Source: Ligustrum vulgare (taxonomy: Eukaryota; Streptophyta; Magnoliopsida; Lamiales; Oleaceae). From it: 64,000 nucleotides of DNA. A model generated the notes under the pieces. That model had not been told where the DNA came from. It ran no database searches and worked only from the letters and a program-made list of their open reading frames with translations. Location of the stretch: positions 20,087,446 through 20,151,445 of the forward strand of contig OY743172.1 in assembly GCA_963555705.1 (NCBI GenBank). Reading direction: 5' to 3'. This document shows, piece by piece, positions 1 through 61,191 of this stretch; position 1 is the first letter of the stretch, and every line of letters begins with the position of its first letter. The position numbers and the translations under genes are program-made.

Positions 1-2940
1 GGTAATGATCAACCGTGTGGCGTGGTCGGAAAAGGTGATGTACAGATCAAGATCAATAGATCTGTGTGGAAGCTGAAGGACGTGAGACATATTCCAGAAT
101 TGAGGAAGAACTTGATCTCCGTCAAGCAATTGTCGGGAGAAGGACATGTCACCACCTTCTCTGGTGATAACTGGAAGATCACCAAGGGCGCCATGATTAT
201 CGCTCGAGGCAAGGATACTGGCACCCTCTACACAACGATGGATGCTTGTGTGACAATTGCAGTTGCTGAAAGCAAGGAGGGCCCAAACTTGTGGCACCAG
301 AGACTTGGGCATATGAGTCAGAAGGGACTCAAGTATATGCATGCAAAGGGGAAACTACCAGAGCTTCAGTCTACTGATATAGACTTATGCGAGAGTTGCA
401 TCTTTGGGAAGCAAACCAGGGTGAGTTTCAACACTAGTGGTAGAACTCGGAAGCGAGAGAAGCTTGAGTTAGTCCACACAGACGTTTGGGGACCAACCGC
501 AGTTTCATCTATTGGCGGAAAGTCATACTTTGTGACTTTCATTGATGACCACTCGAGAAAAGTGTAGGTTTATTTCTTGAGACACAAGTCCGAAGTATTC
601 GATGTGTTCAAGAAATGGAAAGCCATGGTGGAAAATGAAACAGGATTGCGAGTAAAGAAGCTGAGGTCCGACAACGGAGGAGAATATACGGATATGGCGT
701 TCAAGAAGTTCTGTTACCAGAATGGCATCAAAATGGAGAGGACGTTGCCAGGGACTCCACAGCAAAATGGAGTTGCAGAACGTATGAACCGGACATTAAC
801 GGAGAGAGCCAGAAGCATGAGGTTACATGCAGGCTTGCCCAAACAGTTTTGGGCAGAAGCAGTCAACACAGCGGTGTACCTGATCAATCGAGGACCCTCG
901 GTACCGTTGGAGTACAGGATACCGGAGGAAGTATGGAGCGGAAAAGAAATAAAACTTTCCCACATGAAAGTTTTTGGATGTGTCGCATATGCACATATTA
1001 GTGATCAGGCAAGGGGCAAGCTAGACTCCAAATCACTAAAGTGCACATTCATTGGATATGGCGGAGATGAGTTCGGCTACCGCTTATGGGATGACCAGAA
1101 TAGAAAGGTCATCAGAAGCAGGGATGTCATATTCAACGAGAAGGTTATGTACAAGGACAGAAATGCAGTGCAGTCCGATGACACAGTACATGATGGTCCA
1201 ACATATGTTGAGTTGGATGATGCTCCAGAAAGTAGTACGTCGCAGCAGACAGAGGAGGATCTGCAGTTACAGGAGCCTGTTCTAGAGACTGATGCATCAC
1301 AGTCTCCAGTCCCTGTTCTTAGAAGGTCAACCAGACCTCATGTTCCAAATAGAAAGTACATGAGCTGCATGTTACTTACTGATGCAGGTGAACCTGAATG
1401 CTATCATGAGGCATGTCAGGTCGGTGATTCTGGAAAGTGGGAGCTTGCGATGAAAGACGAGATAAAGTCTCTCATCTCTAACCAGACGTGGGAACTAGCT
1501 GAGTTACCTACAGGAAAGAGAGCTCTACACAATAAGTGGGTGTACAGAATCAAGGAGGAACATGATGGATCAAAGAGATACAAGGCGAGGTTGGTGGTCA
1601 AAGGTTTCCAGCAGAAAGAAGGAATTGACTACACGGAAATATTTTCGCCAGTTGTGAAGCTGACAACAATCAGATCAGTCTTGAGTATTGTTGCAGCAGA
1701 GGGTTTGCACTTGGAGCAGTTAGATGTAAAAACTGCTTTCCTCCATGGTGACCTTGAGGAGGAAATATATATGCAGCAGCCAGAAGGCTTCTCAGTCAAA
1801 GGAAAGGAGAAGCTCGTTTGCAAATTGAAGAAGAGCCTGTATGGCTTAAAGCAAGCCCCGAGACAGTGGTACAAGAAGTTCGACGGATTTATGCAGAAAA
1901 ATGGCTACTTCAAATGTAATGCTGACCATTGTTGCTACTTCAGGAGATTCGAGTCCAGTTATATAATTTTGCTACTTTATGTCGATGATATGTTAGTAGC
2001 AGGCTCAGATATGGACGAAATCAAGAAGTTAAAGATGCAGCTGTCAGCAGAATTCGAAATGAAGGACTTGGGTGCAGCGAAGCAGATTCTCGGAATGAGG
2101 ATTTTCAGAGATAAGCAGAAGGGTATCTTGCAGTTATCTCAGGCCAAGTACATTAGTCAAGTCCTGCAGAGATTTAACATGTGCAGTGCGAAGGCTGTCA
2201 GCACGCCACTAGCTAATCACTTCCGTCTATCTAGTGATCAGAGTCCTAAGACAGAGGACGAGATAAACTTCATGGCTAAAATACCATATGCCTCAGCCAT
2301 TGGAAGTTTGATGTATGTCATGGTTTGTACCAGACCAGATATTGCTCATGCAGTGGGAGTTGTGAGCAGGTTTATGGCAAATCCAGGAAAGCAGCATTGG
2401 GAAGCAGTAAAGTGGATATTAAGATATCTACGGGGAACTACTGATAGATGCTTATGCTTTGGACGAGGCGAGGTGACTCTACAAGGCTTTGTAGATGCAG
2501 ATTTTGCTGGCGAAGTAGATCGCAGGAGAAGTACTACTGGTTATGTTTTCACAGTAGGTACTACTGCAGTTAGCTGGATTTCGCAGATACAGAAGATTGT
2601 TGCTCTATCCACTACAGAAGCAGAGTACGTGGCAGTAACCGAGGCTAGCAAAGAAATGATCTGGTTACAGAGTTTGTTGGCAGAATTGGGATTCAGTCAG
2701 GAGAAGAATGTTTTGCACAGTGATAGTCAGAGTGCGATACATCTGGCAAAGAATTCAGCATTTCATTCTAGAACCAAGCACATTGGACTCCGTTATCACT
2801 TCATCAGGTCTCTTCTAGAGGATGAAGTATTAACACTAGAGAAGATCCAGGGTAGCAAGAACCCAGCCGACATGATGACCAAGACAGTAACAAAGGAAAA
2901 ATTGGAGCTGTGCTCAGCTTCAATTGGTCTTCTGAAGTGA
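1..2940 (+). pseudogene. Ty1/copia pol polyprotein (Tork/Tnt1-like), 3' part, one in-frame stop
   Basis: Retrotransposon polyprotein that would supply integrase, reverse transcriptase and RNase H. The frame is open from base 1, so the 5' part (gag, protease, 5' LTR) lies outside the window. In order: GAG-pre-integrase with an HHCC finger (LWHQRLGH then CESCIFGK, about 290-415); integrase core with catalytic D in HTDVWGP, D in FIDDHS and E in QQNGVAERMNRT; reverse transcriptase (KARLVVKGF, LDVKTAFLHG, YVDD near 1980); RNase H (VDADFAGEVDRRRSTTGY, STTEAEYVA) to the stop at 2938-2940. The only lesion visible is TAG at 565-567, between FIDDHSRKV and VYFL; copia families normally have Trp here, so a single TGG-to-TAG change is the simplest explanation. 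The frame is otherwise uninterrupted, which indicates a young copy. Assignment to copia is certain; the Tork/Tnt1 lineage is inferred from motif style. Confidence 0.93.
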
Positions 2941-44400: not shown

Positions 44401-44582
44401 TTTATTGATTGTTTGTTGGGATAATTCTAGTTGTATAAAATGGGAATGACAAAATGGTTCTCTGTTGGATTTTTGATTCAAAATAATTTATGGACCAAAT
44501 TTATTACTTTTGGAGTAATTGAAGTTGGTCAATTAGGGCACTTGTTGGGAAGTCAAAAACGTAGACAGAGGCTGGGACTTTG

Positions 44583-47500
44583 TATAGCGACCCAGAATTT
44601 TTACTCAATTTTATAATTATTTTAATATTTAGAAAATTGTATCGCTACTATTTCACCTATTATTTTGAAGTTAACGCCGCGACGGATTCGTCTAGCCAAG
44701 TCAAGAAATATCGAATTTGTTCGATTTTAAATTAAAATCCGAATTTCTAAAAAAATATGTTATTTAATTATTTATTCAAAGTATTATTTTCAAAATCATT
44801 TTGAATTCCAAATTTATTAAAATATCTCAATGATCCTTATCAAATTATTTCAAGTCCAAATACGTAATTCAAATTTATCTCAATAATTATTTATTTTAAT
44901 TTGATTATATTTAATTAAACCAAATTTTCTCCACATGTTTTCATATCTTTACACCATTTTCTTTATTCCTCTTTCCATCTCATTATACAACACATCTCCT
45001 TTTTCTTTTCACAAAATCTAATCATTTTATTCTAAAACCTTACAGCTAATCTAATTCCTACCCAACCTAAAACTCCACCACGATTTCATCATACAACCAC
45101 ACCTCCATTCAACTCACATGGCACAACCTATATTCCCTTTCCATTATTTTTATTTGATGATTCCCCATGTCTCCTCTTTAATCATTTTAATTTCTTTCTC
45201 TTTTCCTTTAAAAACACCAACATTCATCACCCGTATCCATCATATTCTCCATCAAATCAACCATCAAAACATAATGATGATATTCTATTTCACACCAAAT
45301 TCTCCACTAACCAAAACACAATTTCATTTCCACCTATCTTAATTCCATCACACTAACACAAATCTGTATAAAACCATAAGTACAGATCAAACCACCTTCA
45401 TCCCCATGAATCATCACGTCTACCATCAATGCCTGCACCCAACTCCATCATCTTCAATAACCACAGCCATTCCAACCACCAGCCTGCTTTGTCATTTTCA
45501 ATTTCCAACTCCATCTTCAACCAACACTACCTCTGCCTCAACTCCATAACCGGCAGCCACAAATCAATCACCCAACCAACCGGCTACATCATGATCATCA
45601 CCAGTCCACTGCCCCAAAATCACTATCACACAACTCAGAGAAATCAATTCACAGCTCAATTCATAAAGCCATGGTTCCGCAGCCACTGCCACAAATAAAC
45701 CACCATCTCCAAATCCAAACCGTCACACCATCACTGTTCCATCGCCAATCATCATCATCAATTCTGTTTCCATCTCCAGTCACCAATTCAACCACTGCAG
45801 TCACTCGAAAACCACCACCGGAAATCACAACCACCGCCTGAACCTCCATCGACGCCACTGCCCAACTTCAATAGCAAATCAGAACAACTCCTATAACAAC
45901 CCAAAACCTGCAGCAAAACCACCTAAACCGCCGTTCACTACCTCAATCACCAATTGCTGCCAAAAGCCAAGTCCTTGAATCCAACCACCAGCAATCATAG
46001 ATAAAACCCAAAATCAACTAAACCAAAGACTTACCTCGACGCCGACTTCCAGTGACCGGATTTGTCACCGGAAATCGCAATCAAGATCAGAGCTTGAGCC
46101 TTGGATTCACCTCGAATCAACACCAAAACCAAAGAAATAGAATACCCAAATACTTACCTCAACCTTAAGCCCTTCGCTGCCAGATTTAATACCGGAGATT
46201 AATCGCGATTCAAGCCTAGTTTAGCCTCGGTTTTTATCCCCATCTCACACCAAACTCTTTCAAAACCGGAACCCCTTCTTTGCCGCACCTTACGCCGGTG
46301 TCTCGCCGACGTTTCTTCAGTAGAACCACTGCCCAGTTCGTCGGCCGGTTGAGAGAAACGGGTAGAGAGAGAGAGAGAGTATGGAAGTGAGAGAGAGAGT
46401 ATAACGAGAGAATGGTTAGAGAGAGAGAGAAAGATCTGATATATTTAACTTTCCAGAATTTGCAAATCAGTCCCTGACATTTTAATTTGTTTCCATTCAG
46501 TCCTTTTAGTTTTAAAATCATCAATTTCAGCCCTTAAGTTTTAAATGATTTTAATCAGCCCTTTCATTTTAAAATTCTGATCAATTCAGTCCCTGCTGAT
46601 TTACTTTATTTGATTTTAAGCTCAAGTTTCAAAAGTATTCATTTTAATCCCTTAACTTTCAAAAGTATTCATTTTAATCCCTCAACTTTCAAAAGTATTC
46701 ATTTTAGTCCATCAACTTTCAAAACATCAATTTTAGTCCTCAAAATTATAATTTATCATTTTGAACTATATATTCGATATACTAAAGTGACTTATTGGCT
46801 AAGACGAAGCGTACGGAGAATTTAAAGAAATTGAAGTCATTCCCGCTCAACTTTGCACTCGTCGGATTTGAGGTAGACTCGCACTTATTAATTGATTTAA
46901 ATTATGATTTCATATGAATGTCATGTGACTTGTGAAAGTCAATTTTCAAGAAAATTAAGTATGTTTTATGAAAGGTAAATATACCTTATGTTTTTATGAA
47001 AAGTAAGTATACCCTATGTTTTTACGATAATGTTTTATATGTTTTGGATCATTGCTATGCACATAAGAATTCTTACCACCTAAGTTCGGTAGAATTCTTG
47101 TGTCTCCATAAGTTTATGAGGATTTACCACCTAAGTTCGGTAAAATTCCTGTCTTTCCATATGTTTATGAGGATTTACCACCTAAGTTCGGTAAAATTCC
47201 TGTCGCGTATGTTTATGAGGATTTCGATCCTATCTTATGTTATGATGGAAATGATCCCTATGAATTTCATGAATTATGTTTTGGTATACTTACTGTTATT
47301 ATGATTTTACTACATAAGAATTCTTGCCACCTAAGTTCGGTAAAATTCTTATGTTTATGAGGATTTCGATATTTTCCTATGTTATGATGAAAACTTACTG
47401 TTATTATGATTTTACTGCATAAGAATTCTTGCCACCTAAGTTCGGTAAAGTTCTTGTGTCTATTTATGTTTATGAGGATTTCAATCCTATCTTATGTTAT

Positions 47501-48124
47501 GCTTTCAAAAGAAATTATGCTTGGCATAATTAAAATGTTTTTATAAGTATATGGTTTTCAAAGAGCTGTTTTCAAAGAGCCTATGATTTGCAAAATATGT
47601 CCCGTGCTGTAATGCACAATATGAGTTTTATCAAGAGCAGTTTTATAAAGAAGCTCTATCAATGCCCGTTTTATAAAGAGCCGGGATTTATGTGTTTAAT
47701 CATCTTATAAATTAAATTAATTTGCGATGAGTCTACTGAGTATTTCCCCCATGAAATACTCACCCTACTTTTTAACAGTTTTGCAGATTTCGGAGACGGT
47801 GGCGAGCGATGAATGATGGTGGCAATAATCGTTGAACGGTTGAAAGTTTGACGTTAATGATTTCCGTATTTTCCAAATAATCGCATAATTTAGAGAAGTT
47901 CATTTATTTGAGAAATTATGATATTGGCAATTTCTTTACAATATTAATGGTTCGATTTACTATTTCAAATGGTTTCATAAATGTTTTCAATTTTAGCGGC
48001 CATTACAGTTTATTTAATGTTGCCAAAAATGAATTTCAATTATTTCTTCCGCAAAAATATTATTCGAAAAATTTAGACAGAAAATGACGTAGTGAATCGG
48101 ATATACGGAACTCGGGGCGCTACA
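44583..48124 (+). repeat. Left (5') LTR, 3,542 bp
   Basis: Offset of 6,826 bp from the right LTR throughout with no indel found. Internal features: three tandem 30-bp units AAAGTATTCATTTTA near 46635-46725, a GAGA tract near 46365, and five copies of CCACCTAAGTTCGGTA at 47076-47450. Short open frames inside are identical in both LTRs and have no recognisable product. Confidence 0.95.
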
Positions 48125-48127
48125 AGT

Positions 48128-48139
48128 TGGTATCAGAGC
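48128..48139 (+). other. Primer-binding site, initiator Met tRNA
   Basis: TGGTATCAGAGC, an exact match to the usual complement of plant initiator tRNA-Met 3' end, three bases after the left LTR. Confidence 0.93.
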
Positions 48140-49320
48140 TAGTCTGCGTTTCTGTAGACTGGAAAAATTTTCAAAAAGAATTTTCAAGAAATATTTTCCA
48201 TTATAAAATATTATTGATGAAGATTGCCACTGCCATCATTTCGCTCCACCAACTCCGAGGTAAAGAAGTTTATAATGTTTAAAGTTATTTCAGTATTTCG
48301 AATACTCATTTTATTGATTTATGAGAAAGAATGAAGAGTATTTCGGATACTTATGATTTATGAGAAATAAGAATGTATTTCTTCAAAAATAATGATGTTG
48401 TTATGCTTTGTCATAACTTATATGCTTTAATGTATGATTATGAGAAATTTTTTAAGAAAGAAAACGAGTGTTGAGCATAATGGGAACAATATGATTTTAT
48501 TGAAAATTAAGTAATGGATATTATGTTGAGTAAATGAATTATGCCTCTATGTTGAAGAGAAATTTATTATGAAGTTTGGCTTTGTGAATAAATTTTGGGA
48601 ATATGATTTATGGCATATATTTATAAGTATGAGTAACTTTTGAGCCAATTAAGGTATGGAAGGAAGTGATATTGTGATATTGAAAAATATGATTTGAAAT
48701 TGTTATGTTGAGGAATTATGAATTGAATTATGAGATATTTTGATGATATTGAAGTATTGGAATCATTTTCAATATTTTTAGATCGTTGTGATCAAATGTG
48801 GAGTTATTTATTATTGTGAGTTATGAAGTATGCTTATGGTTTGGAATAAGTCCAAATTACAAGGGAGACTCTGTCCAGAATTTTATCATTTGGAATTAAG
48901 AGCATAATATGATAAGCATCTACTAAAGGAATTAAGTTTAGACATGCAAGTTCATTTACATCACAAACGAGATTTAGTAGAAGATAACAGAGATTTTATT
49001 ATTTTCTCATAAGGAGAACACACAAGAGTCACACTGGAAAGGAAATACATGAAACACACAAAAGCAAACGAGAGAAGCATGGGATAATCCTCAAAATGAG
49101 AGATGTGTTTCCGGAGTAGCCGTATCCTACCACCTCTGATCTTTTGAGGAAATAAAGAAACCTTCAAAGAGGTGTGTTTCGAGAGTAAGAATACTCCGTA
49201 ATCTACCACCTGAAATCTTTGAAGTACACACAAGATTTAAACATTAAGGAAATCCTAGTAAATGGAGGGGTGTCTCGAGAGTGAGAATACTCCGTACTCT
49301 ACCCCCACCTATTCTAAGAT
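48140..49320. other. Element leader and 3' region of the antisense LOG-like gene
   Basis: 48140-48990 is AT-rich leader of the retrotransposon with no gag-like frame. On the minus strand, 48995-49320 reads as the 3' UTR of the LOG-like gene, with AATAAA at 48995-49000 and three related hairpin-forming repeats annotated separately. Confidence 0.6.
49104..49316 (-). repeat. Three diverged hairpin repeats in the 3' UTR of the LOG-like gene
   Basis: Units at about 49104-49150, 49169-49218 and 49264-49314 share, in plus-strand reading, GAGRTGTGTTTC, then GAGAGTAAGAATACTCCGTA, then CTACCACCT. GAGT pairs with ACTC across a short loop and GAGGTG with CACCTC at the base, so each could form a stem-loop in the antisense transcript. 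Conservation of paired ends among the three copies suggests a structural role. Confidence 0.6.
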
Positions 49321-49974
49321 TCACAGAGTTAAATTTACATTAACCGGACTCCATTTTCGCTTGATTCCCCTTCCTTGCGACCAATCTATCTTAACTCCTG
49401 CTGGATCTTGTATTGAGATATATGACTGCAGCTTATCCAGTAGTTCATCAATAGTAGGAGCAGAAATAAGAAGCCTTCTGGAAAATGGAGAGATGAATCC
49501 CTGTTCCACAGCATAATCAAGAAAGGTTAACAAACCATCAAAGAAATTGTTAACATTCAGAAGCCCAATAGGCTTAGTATGGAGATCTAGTTGAGCCCAC
49601 GAGGTAATGTTAAAAATTTCTTCTATGGTACCAAAACCTCCGGGCAGGGCTATAAAGGCATCAGAACCATATAGCATACAAGTTATGCGTTCATGGATGG
49701 ATAAGGTTTGAACTTCATGCCCTCGTGTTTTGCCTGCAACATCTACCAAAGGGACAGGTATAACACCGATTACTTTTGATTTCTCTGCAAGAGCAGATTG
49801 GGAAACACAACCCATTAGACCACTGCTACCACCCCCATATACAAGAGTGATACCTTTTTCCCCCAGTTTCTTTCCAAGATCTACGGCCGCTTCTAGATAA
49901 CCGAAGCCTTTCCCCACTTTTGATCCACAAAATACACAAATAGTTTTGATCTGTCGAAGTTTTGGTGCTTCCAT
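49321..49974 (-). CDS. LOG-like: LOG-like cytokinin riboside 5'-monophosphate phosphoribohydrolase, intronless, 217 aa
   Basis: LOG enzymes release active cytokinin free bases from nucleoside 5'-monophosphates in one step, in the cytosol. The full-length 217-aa frame has the Rossmann nucleotide-binding start (ICVFCGSKVGKGFGY, about 12-26), GGGSSGLMG (48-55), GVIPVPLV (70-77) and the signature PGGFGTIEE (111-119), plus WAQLDLHTKPIGLLN (126-140). Where plant LOGs usually show an R-K pair before SDAFIALPGG, this has HERITCM, keeping R but not K, so activity is uncertain. Length is normal (about 210-220 aa), but host LOG genes have several introns and this has none, as expected of a retro-captured copy. 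Its own TATA-like box lies 75-85 bp upstream and an AATAAA 320 bp downstream. It is antisense to the retrotransposon and downstream of the Cys-cluster gene. Confidence 0.9.
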   Translation of the reverse strand: MEAPKLRQIKTICVFCGSKVGKGFGYLEAAVDLGKKLGEKGITLVYGGGSSGLMGCVSQSALAEKSKVIGVIPVPLVDVAGKTRGHEVQTLSIHERITCMLYGSDAFIALPGGFGTIEEIFNITSWAQLDLHTKPIGLLNVNNFFDGLLTFLDYAVEQGFISPFSRRLLISAPTIDELLDKLQSYISIQDPAGVKIDWSQGRGIKRKWSPVNVNLTL

Positions 49975-50273
49975 CTTTGATAGTAAAGAAGGGAAAACTT
50001 ACGAAGAAGATGTGATTTTGGGATGCCTGAACTATGAAATATGTTTGGCTATTTAAAGCCGGAAAAATTTACTGTTTTTGATTGATTCTGAAAAAGTAAA
50101 GATTTACTTTTGACAAAATAAGCCCACTTTTGAATATTTTTATCGTATCGAGGCTGTCACCTTTCGGCGATTAAATGTTTTATTTCCAGCTTTATCAAAC
50201 CTCGAGAAAGGAAAATATATTTTATTTCCAAAACGCGTGAAAGAAAGCAGCAAAATATTTTAAAAGATTTACC
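49975..50273 (-). other. Intergenic spacer between the two antisense cargo genes
   Basis: Contains, in minus-strand order, AATAAA signals for the upstream gene (50221-50226 and 50179-50184), then the TATA-like box and leader of the LOG-like gene. The compact layout points to two separate transcription units. Confidence 0.55.
50049..50058 (-). promoter_or_regulatory. TATA-like box of the LOG-like gene
   Basis: CTTTAAATAG on the minus strand, 75 bp upstream of the LOG start codon; nearly the same motif precedes the companion gene. Confidence 0.55.
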
Positions 50274-50825
50274 TTATATCATTGCTGAACTGCCAGAAGC
50301 CTCATTTTGTAAAACAGACTGGCAAACAGGACCTTTCGATATTATATTTTGGAGACTATAACGATTTTTGTCCTCGTTAAACTGAGCGTATAAGGAGAGA
50401 AGTTCACGTTGTACATAACCACTTGGGTGCGTCTCAAGAGTCAGTCGAATATCATCCAAAGACTCCTTACTCAGTCCACCCTTTATGAATTCGATTTTAT
50501 CATCCCGATTAGTAGAAGAATATCCTACTGATTTGCAACGAGTATTACAGTTCCAACGAGCACATTTGTAGCAACCACCCAGTCTTTTTGCTCTTCGTTT
50601 CTTTGCAAACGTGCTTTTGCCTAAACCAGGCATGTGTTTAGGAAATGTTGATGGTAATTCACCAGATAGTCGAACCTTTGCTTCTATCAACCAGCGAACA
50701 TCTTCTGGAACACCATGAGCCATCAGCAACCTCAATCTTTCGAGCCTTATTTTATAGATCTTTCTCAGATCATTCATAGGAAGACTGGAATAATACTTGC
50801 GAATGTTAGAAAGAATGATATCCAT
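50274..50825 (-). CDS. Basic Cys-cluster protein, possible nucleic-acid-binding protein, 183 aa
   Basis: Function unknown. The first ATG of the open frame is at 50825; it has a strong context (ACAATGG). The protein has an alpha-helical, charged N-terminus (KIYKIRLERLRLLMAHG), a basic run KKRRAKR at about 75-81 and then a Cys cluster C85-x2-C88-x4-C93-x3-C97 (CYKCARWNCNTRC), suited to zinc and RNA or DNA binding. The C-terminal half has no recognised motif. The basic-run-plus-Cys-cluster layout recalls the small cysteine-rich nucleic-acid-binding proteins of some plant RNA viruses (for example carlaviruses); this is a resemblance of layout, not a demonstrated homology. Intronless, antisense to the element, with TATA-like CTTTTAAATAG at 50858-50868 and AATAAA just downstream. 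Confidence 0.65.
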   Translation of the reverse strand: MDIILSNIRKYYSSLPMNDLRKIYKIRLERLRLLMAHGVPEDVRWLIEAKVRLSGELPSTFPKHMPGLGKSTFAKKRRAKRLGGCYKCARWNCNTRCKSVGYSSTNRDDKIEFIKGGLSKESLDDIRLTLETHPSGYVQRELLSLYAQFNEDKNRYSLQNIISKGPVCQSVLQNEASGSSAMI

Positions 50826-50857
50826 TGTTTGATGATTCAACCTCTTCTCAGCATGAA

Positions 50858-50868
50858 CTATTTAAAAG
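50858..50868 (-). promoter_or_regulatory. TATA-like box of the Cys-cluster gene
   Basis: CTTTTAAATAG on the minus strand, about 33 bp upstream of ATG 50825. A very short upstream frame (ATGCTGAGAAGAGGTTGA) lies between them and could repress translation if included in the leader. Confidence 0.5.
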
Positions 50869-51408
50869 CGCAAATGATCTGAGTGAATCCGCGTGATGTT
50901 GTGACCAGCAAGAAAGCGCAGGTTTATTTTTATGAAAAGAGGAGACAAGAAGTAATGCGCTGTTAAATTTTATCAATAAAGGAGATTTGATTGGAGATTT
51001 GGAATATTTTCTTGGATTATGGGTACTGATATTTTGTTTTAATAATGATAATCTTGGTATAGTGTGATGATACGTGGAAAGTAAAATGAGTACCGTATTG
51101 AATCAGAATTCATACGTATATACAAGTGAAAGAAATACTTTGCAGGAAATGTGGTGACATTTAAGTATAGAATCTTAGTTGGGAGATATTTGTTTACTGA
51201 ATTTTGGGTTACAAATATTGGAAAGATAAGTTGATGATATTATGTTGATATGTTTGGGTATATTACGTAGAGAAAATATTCAGGTAATTCTTTGATTATT
51301 TTGAGAATATTCGATGATTAGAAGAAGAGATTTTGATTAAGTATTCAGAAATTATAAGATCAAGTAAGTTTAATTTCGAGGACGAAATTATTTTTAAGGA
51401 GGTAAGAT
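50869..51408 (+). other. 3' interior of the retrotransposon with polypurine tract
   Basis: AT-rich, no gag-pol. Ends with TCGAGGACGAAATTATTTTT and AAGGAGGTAAGAT (about 51396-51408), the polypurine tract next to the right LTR; this end matches the usual tail of chromovirus elements. Confidence 0.75.
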
Positions 51409-54400
51409 TATAGCGACCCAGAATTTTTACTCAATTTTATAATTATTTTAATATTTAGAAAATTGTATCGCTACTATTTCACCTATTATTTTGAAGTTAA
51501 CGCCGCGACGGATTCGTCTAGCCAAGTCAAGAAATATCGAATTTGTTCGATTTTAAATTAAAATCCGAATTTCTAAAAAAATATGTTATTTAATTATTTA
51601 TTCAAAGTATTATTTTCAAAATCATTTTGAATTCCAAATTTATTAAAATATCCCAATGATCCTTATCAAATTATTTCAAGTCCAAATACGTAATTCAAAT
51701 TTATCTCAATAATTATTTATTTTAATTTGATTATATTTAATTAAACCAAATTTTCTCCACATGTTTTCATATCTTTACACCATTTTCTTTATTCCTCTTT
51801 CCATCTCATTATACAACACATCTCCTTTTTCTTTTCACAAAATCTAATCATTTTATTCTAAAACCTTACACCTAATCTAATTCCTACCCAACCTAAAACT
51901 CCACCACGATTTCATCATACAACCACACCTCCATTCAACTCACATGGCACAACCTATATTCCCTTTCCATTATTTTTATTTGATGATTCCCCATGTCTCC
52001 TCTTTAATCATTTTAATTTCTTTCTCTTTTCCTTTAAAAACACCAACATTCATCACCCGTATCCATCATATTCTCCATCAAATCAACCATCAAAACATAA
52101 TGATGATATTCTATTTCACACCAAATTCTCCACTAACCAAAACACAATTTCATTTCCACCTATCTTAATTCCATCACACTAACACAAATCTGTATAAAAC
52201 CATAAGTACAGATCAAACCACCTTCATCCCCATGAATCATCACGTCTACCATCAATGCCTGCACCCAACTCCATCATCTTCAATAACCACAGCCATTCCA
52301 ACCACCAGCCTGCTTTGTCATTTTCAATTTCCAACTCCATCTTCAACCAACACTACCTCTGCCTCAACTCCATAACCGGCAGCCACAAATCAATCACCCA
52401 ACCAACCGGCTACATCATGATCATCACCAGTCCACTGCCCCAAAATCACTATCACACAACTCAGAGAAATCAATTCACAGCTCAATTCATAAAGCCATGG
52501 TTCCGCAGCCACTGCCACAAATAAACCACCATCTCCAAATCCAAACCGTCACACCATCACTGTTCCATCGCCAATCATCATCATCAATTCTGTTTCCATC
52601 TCCAGTCACCAATTCAACCACTGCAGTCACTCGAAAACCACCACCGGAAATCACAACCACCGCCTGAACCTCCATCGACGCCACTGCCCAACTTCAATAG
52701 CAAATCAGAACAACTCCTATAACAACCCAAAACCTGCAGCAAAACCACCTAAACCGCCGTTCACTACCTCAATCACCAATTGCTGCCAAAAGCCAAGTCC
52801 TTGAATCCAACCACCAGCAATCATAGATAAAAACCAAAATCAACTAAACCAAAGACTTACCTCGACGCCGACTGCCAGTGACCGGATTTGTCACCGGAAA
52901 TCGCAATCAAGATCAGAGCTTGAGCCTTGGATTCACCTCGAATCAACACCAAAACCAAAGAAATAGAATACCCAAATACTTACCTCAACCTTAAGCCCTT
53001 CGCTGCCAGATTTAATACCGGAGATTAATCGCGATTCAAGCCTAGTTTAGCCTCGGTTTTTATCCCCATCTCACACCAAACTCTTTCAAAACCGGAACCC
53101 CTTCTTTGCCGCACCTTACGCCGGTGTCTCGCCGACGTTTCTTCAGTAGAACCACTGCCCAGTTCGTCGGCCGGTTGAGAGAAACGGGTAGAGAGAGAGA
53201 GAGAGTATGGAAGTGAGAGAGAGAGTATAACGAGAGAATGGTTAGAGAGAGAGAGAAAGATCTGATATATTTAACTTTCCAGAATTTGCAAATCAGTCCC
53301 TGACATTTTAATTTGTTTCCATTCAGTCCTTTTAGTTTTAAAATCATCAATTTCAGCCCTTAAGTTTTAAATGATTTTAATCAGCCCTTTCATTTTAAAA
53401 TTCTGATCAATTCAGTCCCTGCTGATTTACTTTATTTGATTTTAAGCTCAAGTTTCAAAAGTATTCATTTTAATCCCTTAACTTTCAAAAGTATTCATTT
53501 TAATCCCTCAACTTTCAAAAGTATTCATTTTAGTCCATCAACTTTCAAAACATCAATTTTAGTCCTCAAAATTATAATTTATCATTTTGAACTATATATT
53601 CGATATACTAAAGTGACTTATTGGCTAAGACGAAGCGTACGGAGAATTTAAAGAAATTGAAGTCATTCCCGCTCAACTTTGCACTCGTCGGATTTGAGGT
53701 AGACTCGCACTTATTAATTGATTTAAATTATGATTTCATATGAATGTCATGTGACTTGTGAAAGTCAATTTTCAAGAAAATTAAGTATGTTTTATGAAAG
53801 GTAAATATACCTTATGTTTTTATGAAAAGTAAGTATACCCTATGTTTTTACGATAATGTTTTATATGTTTTGGATCATTGCTATGCACATAAGAATTCTT
53901 ACCACCTAAGTTCGGTAGAATTCTTGTGTCTCCATAAGTTTATGAGGATTTACCACCTAAGTTCGGTAAAATTCCTGTCTTTCCATATGTTTATGAGGAT
54001 TTACCACCTAAGTTCGGTAAAATTCCTGTCGCGTATGTTTATGAGGATTTCGATCCTATCTTATGTTATGATGGAAATGATCCCTATGAATTTCATGAAT
54101 TATGTTTTGGTATACTTACTGTTATTATGATTTTACTACATAAGAATTCTTGCCACCTAAGTTCGGTAAAATTCTTATGTTTATGAGGATTTCGATATTT
54201 TCCTATGTTATGATGAAAACTTACTGTTATTATGATTTTACTGCATAAGAATTCTTGCCACCTAAGTTCGGTAAAGTTCTTGTGTCTATTTATGTTTATG
54301 AGGATTTCAATCCTATCTTATGTTATGCTTTCAAAAGAAATTATGCTTGGCATAATTAAAATGTTTTTATAAGTATATGGTTTTCAAAGAGCTGTTTTCA

Positions 54401-54950
54401 AAGAGCCTATGATTTGCAAAATATGTCCCGTGCTGTAATGCACAATATGAGTTTTATCAAGAGCAGTTTTATAAAGAAGCTCTATCAATGCCCGTTTTAT
54501 AAAGAGCCGGGATTTATGTGTTTAATCATCTTATAAATTAAATTAATTTGCGATGAGTCTACTGAGTATTTCCCCCATGAAATACTCACCCTACTTTTTA
54601 ACAGTTTTGCAGATTTCGGAGACGGTGGCGAGCGATGAATGATGGTGGCAATAATCGTTGAACGGTTGAAAGTTTGACGTTAATGATTTCCGTATTTTCC
54701 AAATAATCGCATAATTTAGAGAAGTTCATTTATTTGAGAAATTATGATATTGGCAATTTCTTTACAATATTAATGGTTCGATTTACTATTTCAAATGGTT
54801 TCATAAATGTTTTCAATTTTAGCGGCCATTACAGTTTATTTAATGTTGCCAAAAATGAATTTCAATTATTTCTTCCGCAAAAATATTATTCGAAAAATTT
54901 AGACAGAAAATGACGTAGTGAATCGGGTATACGGAACTCGGGGCGCTACA
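51409..54950 (+). repeat. Right (3') LTR, 3,542 bp
   Basis: Same length as the left LTR. Differences noticed by eye: TATCTCAAT/TATCCCAAT, TTACAGC/TTACACC, AAAACCCAA/AAAAACCAA, GACTTCC/GACTGCC and CGGATAT/CGGGTAT. Ends at CGCTACA, then TSD CTTTG. Confidence 0.95.
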
Positions 54951-54955
54951 CTTTG

Positions 54956-59766: not shown

Positions 59767-60708
59767 TATAATGTCTTCTGCAGCTGCTTCTGATGCTAAC
59801 ACAAGTAAGTCTTAAACTATGTACTAAAGAAGAAAAATAACTAGAATCTTGTTTGAAATGCTCGGTCATATCTAGTACTGTGTACCAAACATGTACTCTG
59901 GTTGTAGGGAACATTGTAGCTCTCGGATTGTGATGAGATTCGAAGCGCGGAAGAAACGCCGAAAAGTTCCGAACTCAGGTTGTGGTTAGACAGATGAATC
60001 ATGACCCGATATTCACGACACGATGGCTCGACGATGCGGAATAAAGAACCACGACTTTCGAAACGCCACAAGGATTTGCCCAATCTCCTTGATAAGTCTC
60101 TGGTTTTGAACGCCACAAATATTCTAGCAAATATTTGACAAGTTCGATATTTGAACACCACAAGAAATATTCTTGATAAGTTCGAAAAACATAGGAATCC
60201 ACCTATAACTTTTATTGAATCCTCAATAAAAACTGTTTATAATGTCTTCTGCAGCTGCTTATGATGCTACCACAAGTAAGTCTTAAACTATGTACTAAAG
60301 AAGAAAAACAACTAGAATCTTGTTTGAAATGCTCGGTCATATCTAGTACTGTGTACCAAACATGTACTCTTGTTGTAGGGAACATTGTAGCTCTCGGATT
60401 GTGATGAGATTCGAAGCAAGGAAGAAACGCTGGAAAGTTCCGAACTCAGGTTGTGGTTGGACAAATGAATCATGACCCGATATTCACGACGCGATGGCTC
60501 GACGATGCGGAATAAAGAACCACGACTTTCGAAACGCCACAAGGATTTGCCCAATCTCCTTGATAAGTCTCTGGTTTTGAACGCCACAAATATTCTAGCA
60601 AATATTTGATAAGTTCGATATTTGAACACCACAAGAAATATTCTTGATAAGTTCGAAAAACATAGGAATCCACCTATAACTTTTATTGAATCCTCAATAA
60701 AAACTGTT
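59767..60708. repeat. 471-bp tandem duplication spanning the gene B / LTR junction
   Basis: Units 59767-60237 and 60238-60708 are nearly identical. Each contains the end of exon 6, intron 6, the first 23 bp of exon 7 and about 300 bp of LTR end. Because the host-LTR junction is inside the unit, the duplication happened after the retrotransposon inserted. Confidence 0.92.
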
Positions 60709-61191
60709 TATATCAAAATCAAATCTCAAGTCTGAATTACAATGAATGGAAAGGAATATAAATAAGTAAAATAACCTAGCCGCTAATTGAGTCAAAATAG
60801 AATTCTAATTAGACTAAAATTCTAAAATAGGCAAACACATAATTAAAAACGGAAAAATAATCAAAATCCCCGAAAATCCAGAAAATTAGATTTATGGCCG
60901 TGATGAACTCATTTACGGCCGTAAATGACTTTCTGTTTAAGACTTACGGCCATGACCATATTCTTTACGGTCGTAATGAAGGCTCTGCTCAAATTTGCGA
61001 TAACTATGTTACGATCGTAATTCCAAATGTTAAGTTCGTAAAAGGCCTGCTGCTTAATTTTCTGGTTCTTTTCGACACGGTTTGATCTTCAAAGCTCGTC
61101 AAACCTGTTGAATTCTTATTTTGGCTTGAATATTTAAATTTTCCCGTCAAGCCTGCTATGACTCCGATTGTCGAGGGTCCGGAACACATCA

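What the first reader, a model, noticed from the sequence alone, without database searches (positions are those of the whole stretch)
44583..54950. Very young LTR retrotransposon whose entire coding content is two antisense cargo genes
Seen: LTR-PBS-PPT-LTR with perfect TSD CTTTG, no gag-pol, and two intact intronless minus-strand frames, one a LOG-type cytokinin-activating enzyme and one a basic Cys-cluster protein. Each has a TTTAAATAG box and AATAAA. Antisense extra frames in gypsy elements are known, but a pair combining hormone activation with a putative nucleic-acid-binding protein is one I do not recognise. Inference: the element may spread a small hormone-modifying module, or be the relic of a two-gene unit (viral or host) captured by a chromovirus.
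Basis: partly seen in the sequence, partly recalled or inferred. Interest (0 to 1): 0.92.

Follow-up and report, generated by a model that had tools for sequence, protein, structure and literature searches.

The report
Jumping gene carrying virus-like gene pair
A very abundant plant jumping gene that lacks its own copying machinery instead carries two conserved genes, one resembling a plant-virus protein and one derived from a hormone-activating enzyme, and evolution is keeping both working.

Summary
The window holds a 10,368-bp LTR element: 3,542-bp LTRs (5 mismatches), CTTTG duplication, no gag-pol, two minus-strand genes. It is not a relic. The host genome has 1,982 exact LTR-PBS junctions, and 8 of 10 copies fetched by that junction keep both genes open. 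Both genes are under purifying selection among copies: pN/pS 0.03-0.05 for the LOG-like gene, 0.10-0.20 for the other.

The "basic Cys protein" matches the flexivirus nucleic-acid-binding families PF05515 and PF01623 above their cut-offs and has 379 relatives. Four are fused to LOG-like sequence; one lies in sense behind a gypsy integrase.

Sampled LOG-like relatives form their own clade. Most keep the catalytic Arg/Glu, have changed two substrate-pocket residues, and end in a basic plus LxLxL tail resembling an EAR repression motif; the window's own tail is only a relaxed form.

Best reading: an old accessory module, probably countering silencing, carried by a non-autonomous element. LOG-like and antisense ORFs in gypsy elements are known; I found neither the virus-like partner nor the tail described. 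No gag-pol partner was found; that search was incomplete.

The parts
44578..44582 (.). target-site duplication CTTTG, left
44583..48124 (+). 5' LTR, 3542 bp (TATAGCG...CGCTACA)
48127..48139 (+). primer-binding site TTGGTATCAGAGC (complement of initiator-Met tRNA 3' end; recalled). LTR-PBS 25-mer present 1,982 times in the genome
48995..49000 (-). AATAAA downstream of the LOG-like gene, kept in 19 of 19 aligned copies
49321..49974 (-). LOG-like gene, 217 aa: PF03641 3.7e-33; catalytic R96 and E119 kept; Lys100->I97, Glu125->N122; tail IKRKWSPVNVNLTL
50049..50057 (-). TTTAAATAG box upstream of LOG-like gene, kept in 19 of 19
50179..50226 (-). two AATAAA signals downstream of the NABP-like gene, kept in 19 of 19
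50274..50825 (-). NABP-like gene, 183 aa from ATG: PF05515 4.2e-07, PF01623 4.8e-06; KKRRAKR basic stretch plus C-x2-C-x4-C-x3-C
50858..50866 (-). TTTAAATAG box upstream of NABP-like gene, kept in 18 of 19
51396..51407 (+). polypurine tract AAGGAGGTAAGA; bases from 51372 read NFEDEIIFKEVRL*, like a chromovirus pol C-terminus (recalled, not tested)
51409..54950 (+). 3' LTR, 99.86% identical to the 5' LTR
54951..54955 (.). target-site duplication CTTTG, right

Best explanation
SHOWN: a recently active, high-copy LTR retrotransposon family without gag-pol carries an antisense two-gene module. Relatives of both genes occur in several plant genera and are sometimes linked: (1) a homologue of the cysteine-rich nucleic-acid-binding proteins (NABP/CRP) of flexiviruses and (2) a LOG-derived protein with an intact catalytic dyad, an altered substrate pocket, and in most relatives a basic plus LxLxL tail. 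Both are under purifying selection among copies. INFERRED: each gene is transcribed from its own TATA-type promoter against the element's sense strand. The NABP-like protein binds nucleic acid and blunts RNA silencing or acts as a transcription factor, as published for viral CRPs. The LOG-like protein goes to the nucleus through its basic tail and engages the TOPLESS-type corepressor machinery through the EAR-like end, with or without nucleotide hydrolysis. Together they keep the element expressed long enough to be copied. Gag and Pol come in trans from another element, not identified here.
For: Copy number: 1,982 exact 25-base LTR-PBS junctions, 0 in the reversed control. NABP-like: 150 of 150 scored places full length without stops (the best-scoring 150 of 8,786 first-look candidates). 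Copies fetched by LTR-PBS junction (L039-L048): 8 of 10 keep both frames open. Youth: of 20 copies picked from the 150, 17 have an aligned LTR pair of at least 1.7 kb at 99.1-100%; L017 shows only 272 bp, L023 and L026 none. Selection: pooled uncorrected pN/pS LOG 0.054 (22 sequences), NABP 0.100 (23); in the junction-picked set plus the window LOG 0.033 (9), NABP 0.201 (7). Third codon positions carry 28 (LOG) and 21 (NABP) times the second-position diversity; non-coding interior diversity 0.020-0.084 against 0.011 in both genes. Viral kinship: PF05515 and PF01623 above their cut-offs; 27 and 26 of the 30 members of A1, window included, match at E <= 0.001. Foldseek ranks 1-3 among viral proteins are nucleic-acid-binding/silencing-suppressor proteins of Fig latent virus 1, Sweet potato chlorotic fleck virus and Chrysanthemum virus B, not significant (E 0.38-2.0). 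Viral CRPs are reported as RNA-silencing suppressors, one also as a transcription factor (PMC12172455, passages). Linkage: four Orobanche gene models fuse NABP then LOG in the window's order; three long contig lengths are shared by NABP and LOG hits (4511, 8723, 21981555). In L049 the NABP-like ORF follows a gypsy integrase ORF in sense. LOG clade: 27 sampled retro-type rows together at 99/96, apart from plant and bacterial LOGs. Of the 120 best LOG homologues, 107 lack the Lys100 equivalent; of those 99 keep the catalytic Arg, 105 the catalytic Glu, and 98 carry H, Q or N at Glu125. LxLxL in the last nine residues: 87 of 120, against 1.3 expected from shuffled tails; absent in the three host LOGs of the list.
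Against: No function was measured. The NABP model has low confidence (mean pLDDT 67) and its viral fold matches are not significant. The window's own tail, and that of 24 of 24 intact fetched copies, reads VNVNLTL, not a strict LxLxL. 33 of 120 LOG homologues lack LxLxL at the end, some of them truncated models. Selection on trans-acting proteins in a non-autonomous element needs cis-preference or master copies, neither shown. NABP pN/pS in the first set is biased because those copies were picked by protein score; pairwise values are not independent; singleton changes are less depleted of nonsynonymous ones (LOG 12 syn/12 non, NABP 5/7; one LOG copy has an internal stop). No gag-pol partner was found, and the search was incomplete. 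L049, the one sense-oriented example, is filed under a bacterial MAG; I take it to be plant DNA, and its NABP falls just below the PF01623 cut-off (20.4 against 20.9).
Confidence: 0.5

Rival explanations
1. Hormone module: the LOG-like protein is an active cytokinin-nucleotide phosphoribohydrolase that raises active cytokinin locally, favouring dividing cells and thereby germline transmission; the NABP-like protein is a transcription factor promoting proliferation, as reported for one carlavirus CRP.
For: Catalytic Arg and Glu and PGGxGTxxE kept; LOG pN/pS 0.03-0.05; Chrysanthemum virus B CRP reported to induce hyperplasia as a transcription factor (PMC12172455 passage).
Against: Lys100, listed in the CgLOG adenine and prenyl sites (alanine changes of the listed residues, taken together, almost abolished activity; PMC4979012 passages), is I/M/L in 104 of the 107 rows that lack it, and Glu125 of the prenyl site is H/Q/N in 98 of 107. 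Three fused Orobanche models also lose the catalytic Arg (SVHDN). The C-terminal tail is unexplained by this model.
Confidence: 0.18
2. Recent virus-plus-host capture specific to this lineage: a chromovirus-like element captured a two-gene viral unit or two cDNAs, now amplified passively.
For: Both genes are single open frames, virus-type Pfam hits, antisense orientation.
Against: 379 NABP relatives, named ones in Orobanche, Populus, Acer and Xanthoceras, and one LOG-like clade argue for an old shared unit; low pN/pS. Direction of transfer between virus and plant element is not settled.
Confidence: 0.15
3. No function: open frames only look conserved because copies are young, gene-converted in tandem arrays, or were picked by protein score.
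For: LTR pairs 99-100% in 17 of 20; 60 of 150 listed places lie in 23 tandem arrays; first copy set chosen by NABP score.
Against: Same signal in copies chosen by LTR-PBS junction; third-position diversity 21-28 times second-position, with non-coding interior about 2-8 times more diverse than the genes; conservation between plant genera.
Confidence: 0.07
4. The antisense transcripts themselves matter: dsRNA with the sense genomic RNA tunes silencing, and coding is secondary.
For: Antisense promoters and this idea are described for plant elements (PMC7264820, section 8).
Against: Selection acts on amino acids, and synonymous sites vary more freely.
Confidence: 0.05

Closest known systems
LOG/YgdH ORFs in plant gypsy elements (Steinbauerova et al. 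2011, not held, abstract recalled: two Athila-like elements resembling LOGL4; Alvarado-Marchena et al. 2022, PMC9289625, passages and section 12 read: YgdH in Citrus consensuses, and in Populus without their filter)
   Same: LOG-fold extra ORF in plant LTR retrotransposons
   Different: There found in consensuses built around an RT domain; no viral NABP-like partner, altered pocket or EAR-like tail mentioned in what I read. Here the element has no gag-pol.
Antisense accessory ORFs between pol and 3' LTR: Retand TRP28, Grande gene23, RIRE2 (PMC7264820: first part and sections 7-8; PMC11963269: abstract and passages)
   Same: Antisense conserved ORFs, own promoter reported in Grande, DNA-binding suggested, viral origin speculated for Retand
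   Different: Different protein families (TRP28, SMC-like). PMC7264820 notes no similarity of such ORFs to viruses, whereas this ORF matches viral families above cut-off
Flexivirus cysteine-rich NABP/CRP (PF05515, PF01623)
   Same: Basic stretch plus Cys cluster; profile match over 105 residues
   Different: Chromosomal, in a retroelement; not in a viral genome
Plant LONELY GUY enzymes (AtLOG3, PDB 2a33)
   Same: Fold family, PGGxGTxxE, catalytic Arg/Glu; 48% identity over 197 aligned columns
   Different: Lys100 and Glu125 equivalents changed; extra basic/EAR-like tail; single open frame; multicopy
AlkB ORF in Phalaenopsis Tat/Ogre-related gypsy elements (PMC9289625, passages)
   Same: RNA-acting accessory domain also known from flexiviruses, fixed in a gypsy lineage
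   Different: Unrelated enzyme, in elements that carry gag-pol

Membership tests
LTR retrotransposon | LTR pair, target-site duplication, PBS, PPT | tested here: met
   (PBS and PPT identified by eye)
LTR retrotransposon | own gag-pol (autonomous) | tested here: not met
   no such ORF in the interior. Of the 10 junction-picked copies (3.5 kb each after the PBS), 8 have the gene pair, L044 neither gene and no long pol ORF, L048 an inserted stretch with a pol-like ORF (by eye)
Chromovirus (Tekay/Del-like) | RT/integrase phylogeny, chromodomain | not testable with these tools
   no pol in the element; iMet PBS and NFEDE...-type 3' end are recalled resemblances only
Flexivirus NABP/CRP family | Pfam PF05515 and PF01623 above gathering score | tested here: met
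   30.6 vs 23 bits and 26.9 vs 20.9 bits; 27 and 26 of 30 members of A1 at E <= 0.001
Flexivirus NABP/CRP family | basic stretch and Cys cluster | tested here: met
   present in the window protein; C-x2-C-x4-C-x3-C in 107 and a basic stretch in 101 of the 120 listed relatives
Flexivirus NABP/CRP family | shared fold | tested here: inconclusive
   low-confidence model; top three viral matches are CRP-type proteins but E 0.38-2.0
Flexivirus NABP/CRP family | silencing suppression / nucleic-acid binding | not testable with these tools
   needs bench assay
LOG cytokinin-activating enzyme | PF03641, PGGxGTxxE, catalytic Arg99/Glu122 | tested here: met
LOG cytokinin-activating enzyme | adenine/prenyl site Lys100, Glu125 | tested here: not met
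   I97 and N122 here; changed in most relatives
LOG cytokinin-activating enzyme | phosphoribohydrolase activity | not testable with these tools
   needs enzyme assay
EAR-motif repressor | LxLxL | tested here: inconclusive
   strict in 87 of 120 LOG homologues; window copy reads VNLTL, so strictly not met here
EAR-motif repressor | binding to TPL/TPR | not testable with these tools
   needs binding assay

The most novel reading that the evidence does not exclude
Plant LTR retrotransposons have long carried a two-protein counter-silencing kit: an RNA-virus-type silencing suppressor plus a LOG enzyme turned into a nuclear TOPLESS-recruiting protein. In this plant the kit has split from gag-pol, so the element behaves like one segment of a bipartite retrotransposon: one partner supplies the copying machinery, the other the protection.
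Probability: 0.3. Interest if true: 0.92.

Novelty: new variant of a known kind. Interest (0 to 1): 0.78.

Why it matters
The origin of antisense accessory ORFs in plant LTR retrotransposons is called unknown in the review I read in part (PMC7264820), and a later study suggests an unknown virus (PMC11963269, passages). Here one such ORF matches a known RNA-virus protein family whose members are reported silencing suppressors, in a family that is young and selected. That makes the question directly testable. The second protein looks like a hormone enzyme remade into something else, which warns against annotating many such copies as cytokinin-activating LOG genes; several bear that name. It also raises how selection can keep trans-acting genes in an element that cannot copy itself.

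Tried and rejected
Rejected: single-copy relic or assembly chimera. Rejected: LOG gene as simple recent host capture (separate clade).

Tried without result: IMG/VR scans with the single protein and with alignment A1 (no relatives). PHROGs gave nothing for the NABP-like protein and a DprA-like family for the LOG-like one. The first NABP model was too poor (pLDDT 58). Search for a gag-pol partner sharing the LTR: pattern CTACAAGTTGGTATCAGAGCNNGGTT gave 2 places, both the same LTR facing an inverted LTR end soon after the PBS, not a partner. Of the 10 junction-picked copies, 8 have both genes, L044 lacks both, L048 is interrupted. Further partner and host-LOG searches did not complete (LOG protein; integrase: 110, 133; second pattern: 131, 137), so absence of a partner is not shown. 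Tandem spacing was read from the 150 listed places only. Not in print: paper searches listed no paper that, by title and start of abstract (and by what I opened), joins plant retrotransposons with the viral NABP families or with a LOG-EAR protein. Searches listed only part of their hits (20 of 35, 12 of 38). The library is open-access only, and Steinbauerova 2011 is not held. Search 53 served the LOG active site, 73 the viral CRPs. One protein search was left unused.
Full report
WHAT IS THERE. The element spans 44583-54950. Its LTRs are 3,542 bp with 5 mismatches, flanked by CTTTG, with TTGGTATCAGAGC two bases after the 5' LTR and a purine tract before the 3' LTR. The interior is 3,284 bp. Its only ORFs of at least 150 aa are on the minus strand: 49321-49974 (217 aa) and 50274-50825 (183 aa from ATG). 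Each has TTTAAATAG upstream, kept in 19 and 18 of 19 aligned copies; two boxes stand against 0.07 expected from base shuffles. Each has AATAAA downstream, kept in 19 of 19, but that signal is common here (eight on that strand of the interior). The PBS type and a 3' end reading NFEDEIIFKEVRL* resemble chromoviruses from memory; no pol was available to test this.

IT IS A LARGE, YOUNG FAMILY. The window lies in a 1.385-Gb genome. The 25-base LTR-PBS junction occurs 1,982 times exactly, and 0 times in the reversed control. A search with the NABP-like protein listed 150 scored places of 8,786 first-look candidates; all 150 were full length without stops at 97-99% identity, but these are the best-scoring ones. 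To lessen that bias I fetched ten junctions from the start of the contig-1 list (3.5 kb each), skipping one beside an already listed NABP place. Eight of ten keep both frames open, one (L044) lacks both genes, and one (L048) is interrupted by a stretch with a pol-like ORF, recognised by eye. Of 20 copies that I picked from the 150, mostly outside arrays, 17 show an aligned LTR pair of at least 1.7 kb at 99.1-100% identity; L017 shows only 272 bp, L023 and L026 none. In the two fetched sets together, the NABP frame is intact in 28 of 30 and the LOG frame, by a strict pattern, in 24 of 30. Sixty of the 150 places lie in 23 same-strand arrays with 6.4-8.0-kb spacing, as expected for LTR-interior-LTR-interior tandems.

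BOTH GENES ARE UNDER SELECTION. Pooled uncorrected pairwise pN/pS is 0.054 for LOG (22 sequences with the window, one with an internal stop) and 0.100 for NABP (23) in the first set, and 0.033 (9) and 0.201 (7) in the junction-picked set plus the window. Diversity by codon position is 0.0048/0.0010/0.0277 for LOG and 0.0074/0.0011/0.0236 for NABP; both genes average 0.011, while interior non-coding stretches range from 0.020 to 0.084. Against this: pairs are not independent, the first set is biased for NABP, and singleton changes are less depleted of nonsynonymous ones (syn/non LOG 12/12, NABP 5/7). That fits selection between rounds of amplification with relaxed decay after insertion (inference).

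THE 'BASIC CYS PROTEIN' IS A FLEXIVIRUS-TYPE NABP. It scores 30.6 bits against PF05515 (cut-off 23) over 105 residues and 26.9 against PF01623 (cut-off 20.9). Of the 30 members of A1, 27 and 26 match these families at E <= 0.001. It has 379 relatives (90% clusters) at E <= 0.001; named ones among the 120 listed include Orobanche, Populus, Acer and Xanthoceras. The Cys pattern C-x2-C-x4-C-x3-C is in 107 of the 120 listed, the basic stretch in 101. The best structural model is weak (pLDDT 67). Its best three matches among viral proteins are nucleic-acid-binding or silencing-suppressor proteins of Fig latent virus 1, Sweet potato chlorotic fleck virus and Chrysanthemum virus B, none significant. 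Viral CRPs are described as silencing suppressors and, for one, a transcription factor (PMC12172455, passages). No viral NABP sequence was compared directly.

THE LOG-LIKE PROTEIN HAS CHANGED. Its best PDB match is AtLOG3 (3.1e-57), 48% identical over 197 aligned columns. In a tree of 36 rows, 27 retro-type rows including the window group at 99/96, three Xanthoceras rows join them at 97/95, and five plant LOGs plus one bacterial LOG lie outside (bootstrap not fully settled). Mapping to C. glutamicum LOG (PMC4979012, passages): of the 120 best homologues, 107 lack the Lys100 equivalent (10 others keep it, 9 of them named Xanthoceras; 3 are host LOGs). Among the 107, catalytic Arg is kept in 99 and catalytic Glu in 105, and Glu125 is H, Q or N in 98. 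I defined the 107 by the missing Lys, so that count is by construction. The tail is the other novelty: 87 of 120 have LxLxL in the last nine residues (1.3 expected from shuffled tails), 86 of them with two adjacent basic residues in the last 25; the three host LOGs do not. The EAR/TOPLESS reading of LxLxL is recalled knowledge. The window copy reads VNVNLTL, identical in 24 of 24 intact fetched copies, a relaxed form only.

THE TWO GENES TRAVEL TOGETHER. Four Orobanche gene models fuse NABP then LOG on one strand, the window's order. Long contig lengths 4511, 8723 and 21981555 recur in both homologue lists (the short coincidences 873-1018 may be chance). A 3,330-bp contig filed under a Candidatus Nomurabacteria MAG (I infer plant DNA) carries an integrase ORF (PF00665, PF17921) followed 192 bases later by an NABP-like ORF in the same sense (PF05515 34.1 bits, above cut-off; PF01623 20.4, just below). 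No LOG match was seen in the remaining kilobase. From memory its pol looks Athila-like. So the virus-like gene also rides in a pol-bearing context in sense.

MECHANISM. I judge an accessory module that protects the element from silencing most likely (0.5), with the LOG-like protein acting in the nucleus. Steps shown: copies, youth, selection, families, residue changes, tail. Steps inferred: transcription, localisation, corepressor contact, silencing suppression, gag-pol in trans. The hormone-module rival stays open because the catalytic pair is kept.

NOVELTY. Extra LOG/YgdH ORFs in gypsy elements are known (PMC9289625 section 12; Steinbauerova 2011 recalled, not held), and so are antisense ORFs (PMC7264820, first part and sections 7-8; PMC11963269, abstract and passages). 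The first calls their origin unknown; the second suggests an unknown virus. Paper searches listed no report of the viral NABP families in LTR retrotransposons or of a LOG-EAR protein, judged by titles and abstract starts, two lists being partial. A cucumber flexivirus insertion described in PMC3136472 is replicase-derived (passages). Hence: new variant of a known kind.

LIMITS. The genome search machine was mostly unreachable. No gag-pol partner, host LOG gene set or transcript was examined.

Noticed in passing
genome places, e.g. C9:10258289-10285519, C23:10311292-10338642, C22:1306427-1326792: Tandem arrays of the element, 2-5 copies at 6.4-8.0 kb spacing; 60 of 150 listed places in 23 arrays.
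   Followed up: partly
L050, L051: The same LTR plus PBS followed within tens of bases by an inverted copy of the LTR end: palindromic rearrangement or self-insertion.
   Followed up: partly
L049:194-2347: Contig in a Candidatus Nomurabacteria genome record that encodes a gypsy integrase and a plant-type NABP; probably misbinned plant DNA.
   Followed up: partly
P0021, P0022, P0025, P0028: Orobanche gene models fusing NABP and LOG; in the three that hold the region the LOG part reads SVHDN, i.e. the catalytic Arg is lost.
   Followed up: partly
P0182, P0198, P0199 (and P0122): Xanthoceras LOG-like rows, next to the retro clade in the tree, keep the HERK-type Lys and end KKRRLA or KKRKLA without LxLxL: a possible intermediate; P0122 is a double LOG model.
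   Followed up: partly
L044 (C1:9555500-9559000): Copy with the same ends but a different, shorter middle and neither gene.
   Followed up: no
window 51125-51324: Interior stretch before the PPT is hypervariable among copies (0.12-0.17 pairwise), far above the rest of the interior.
   Followed up: no
window LTRs, about LTR bases 320-1780: This part of the LTR has no blastn alignment over 150 bp in the 20 copies, while the genes are 98-99.6% alike: rapid LTR turnover or mixing of LTR types.
   Followed up: no
window 22-2940: Copia-type integrase-RT ORFs (recognised by eye) near the window's left end.
   Followed up: no
window 59767-60712: Tandem duplication of a 471-bp unit, 97% matches.
   Followed up: no
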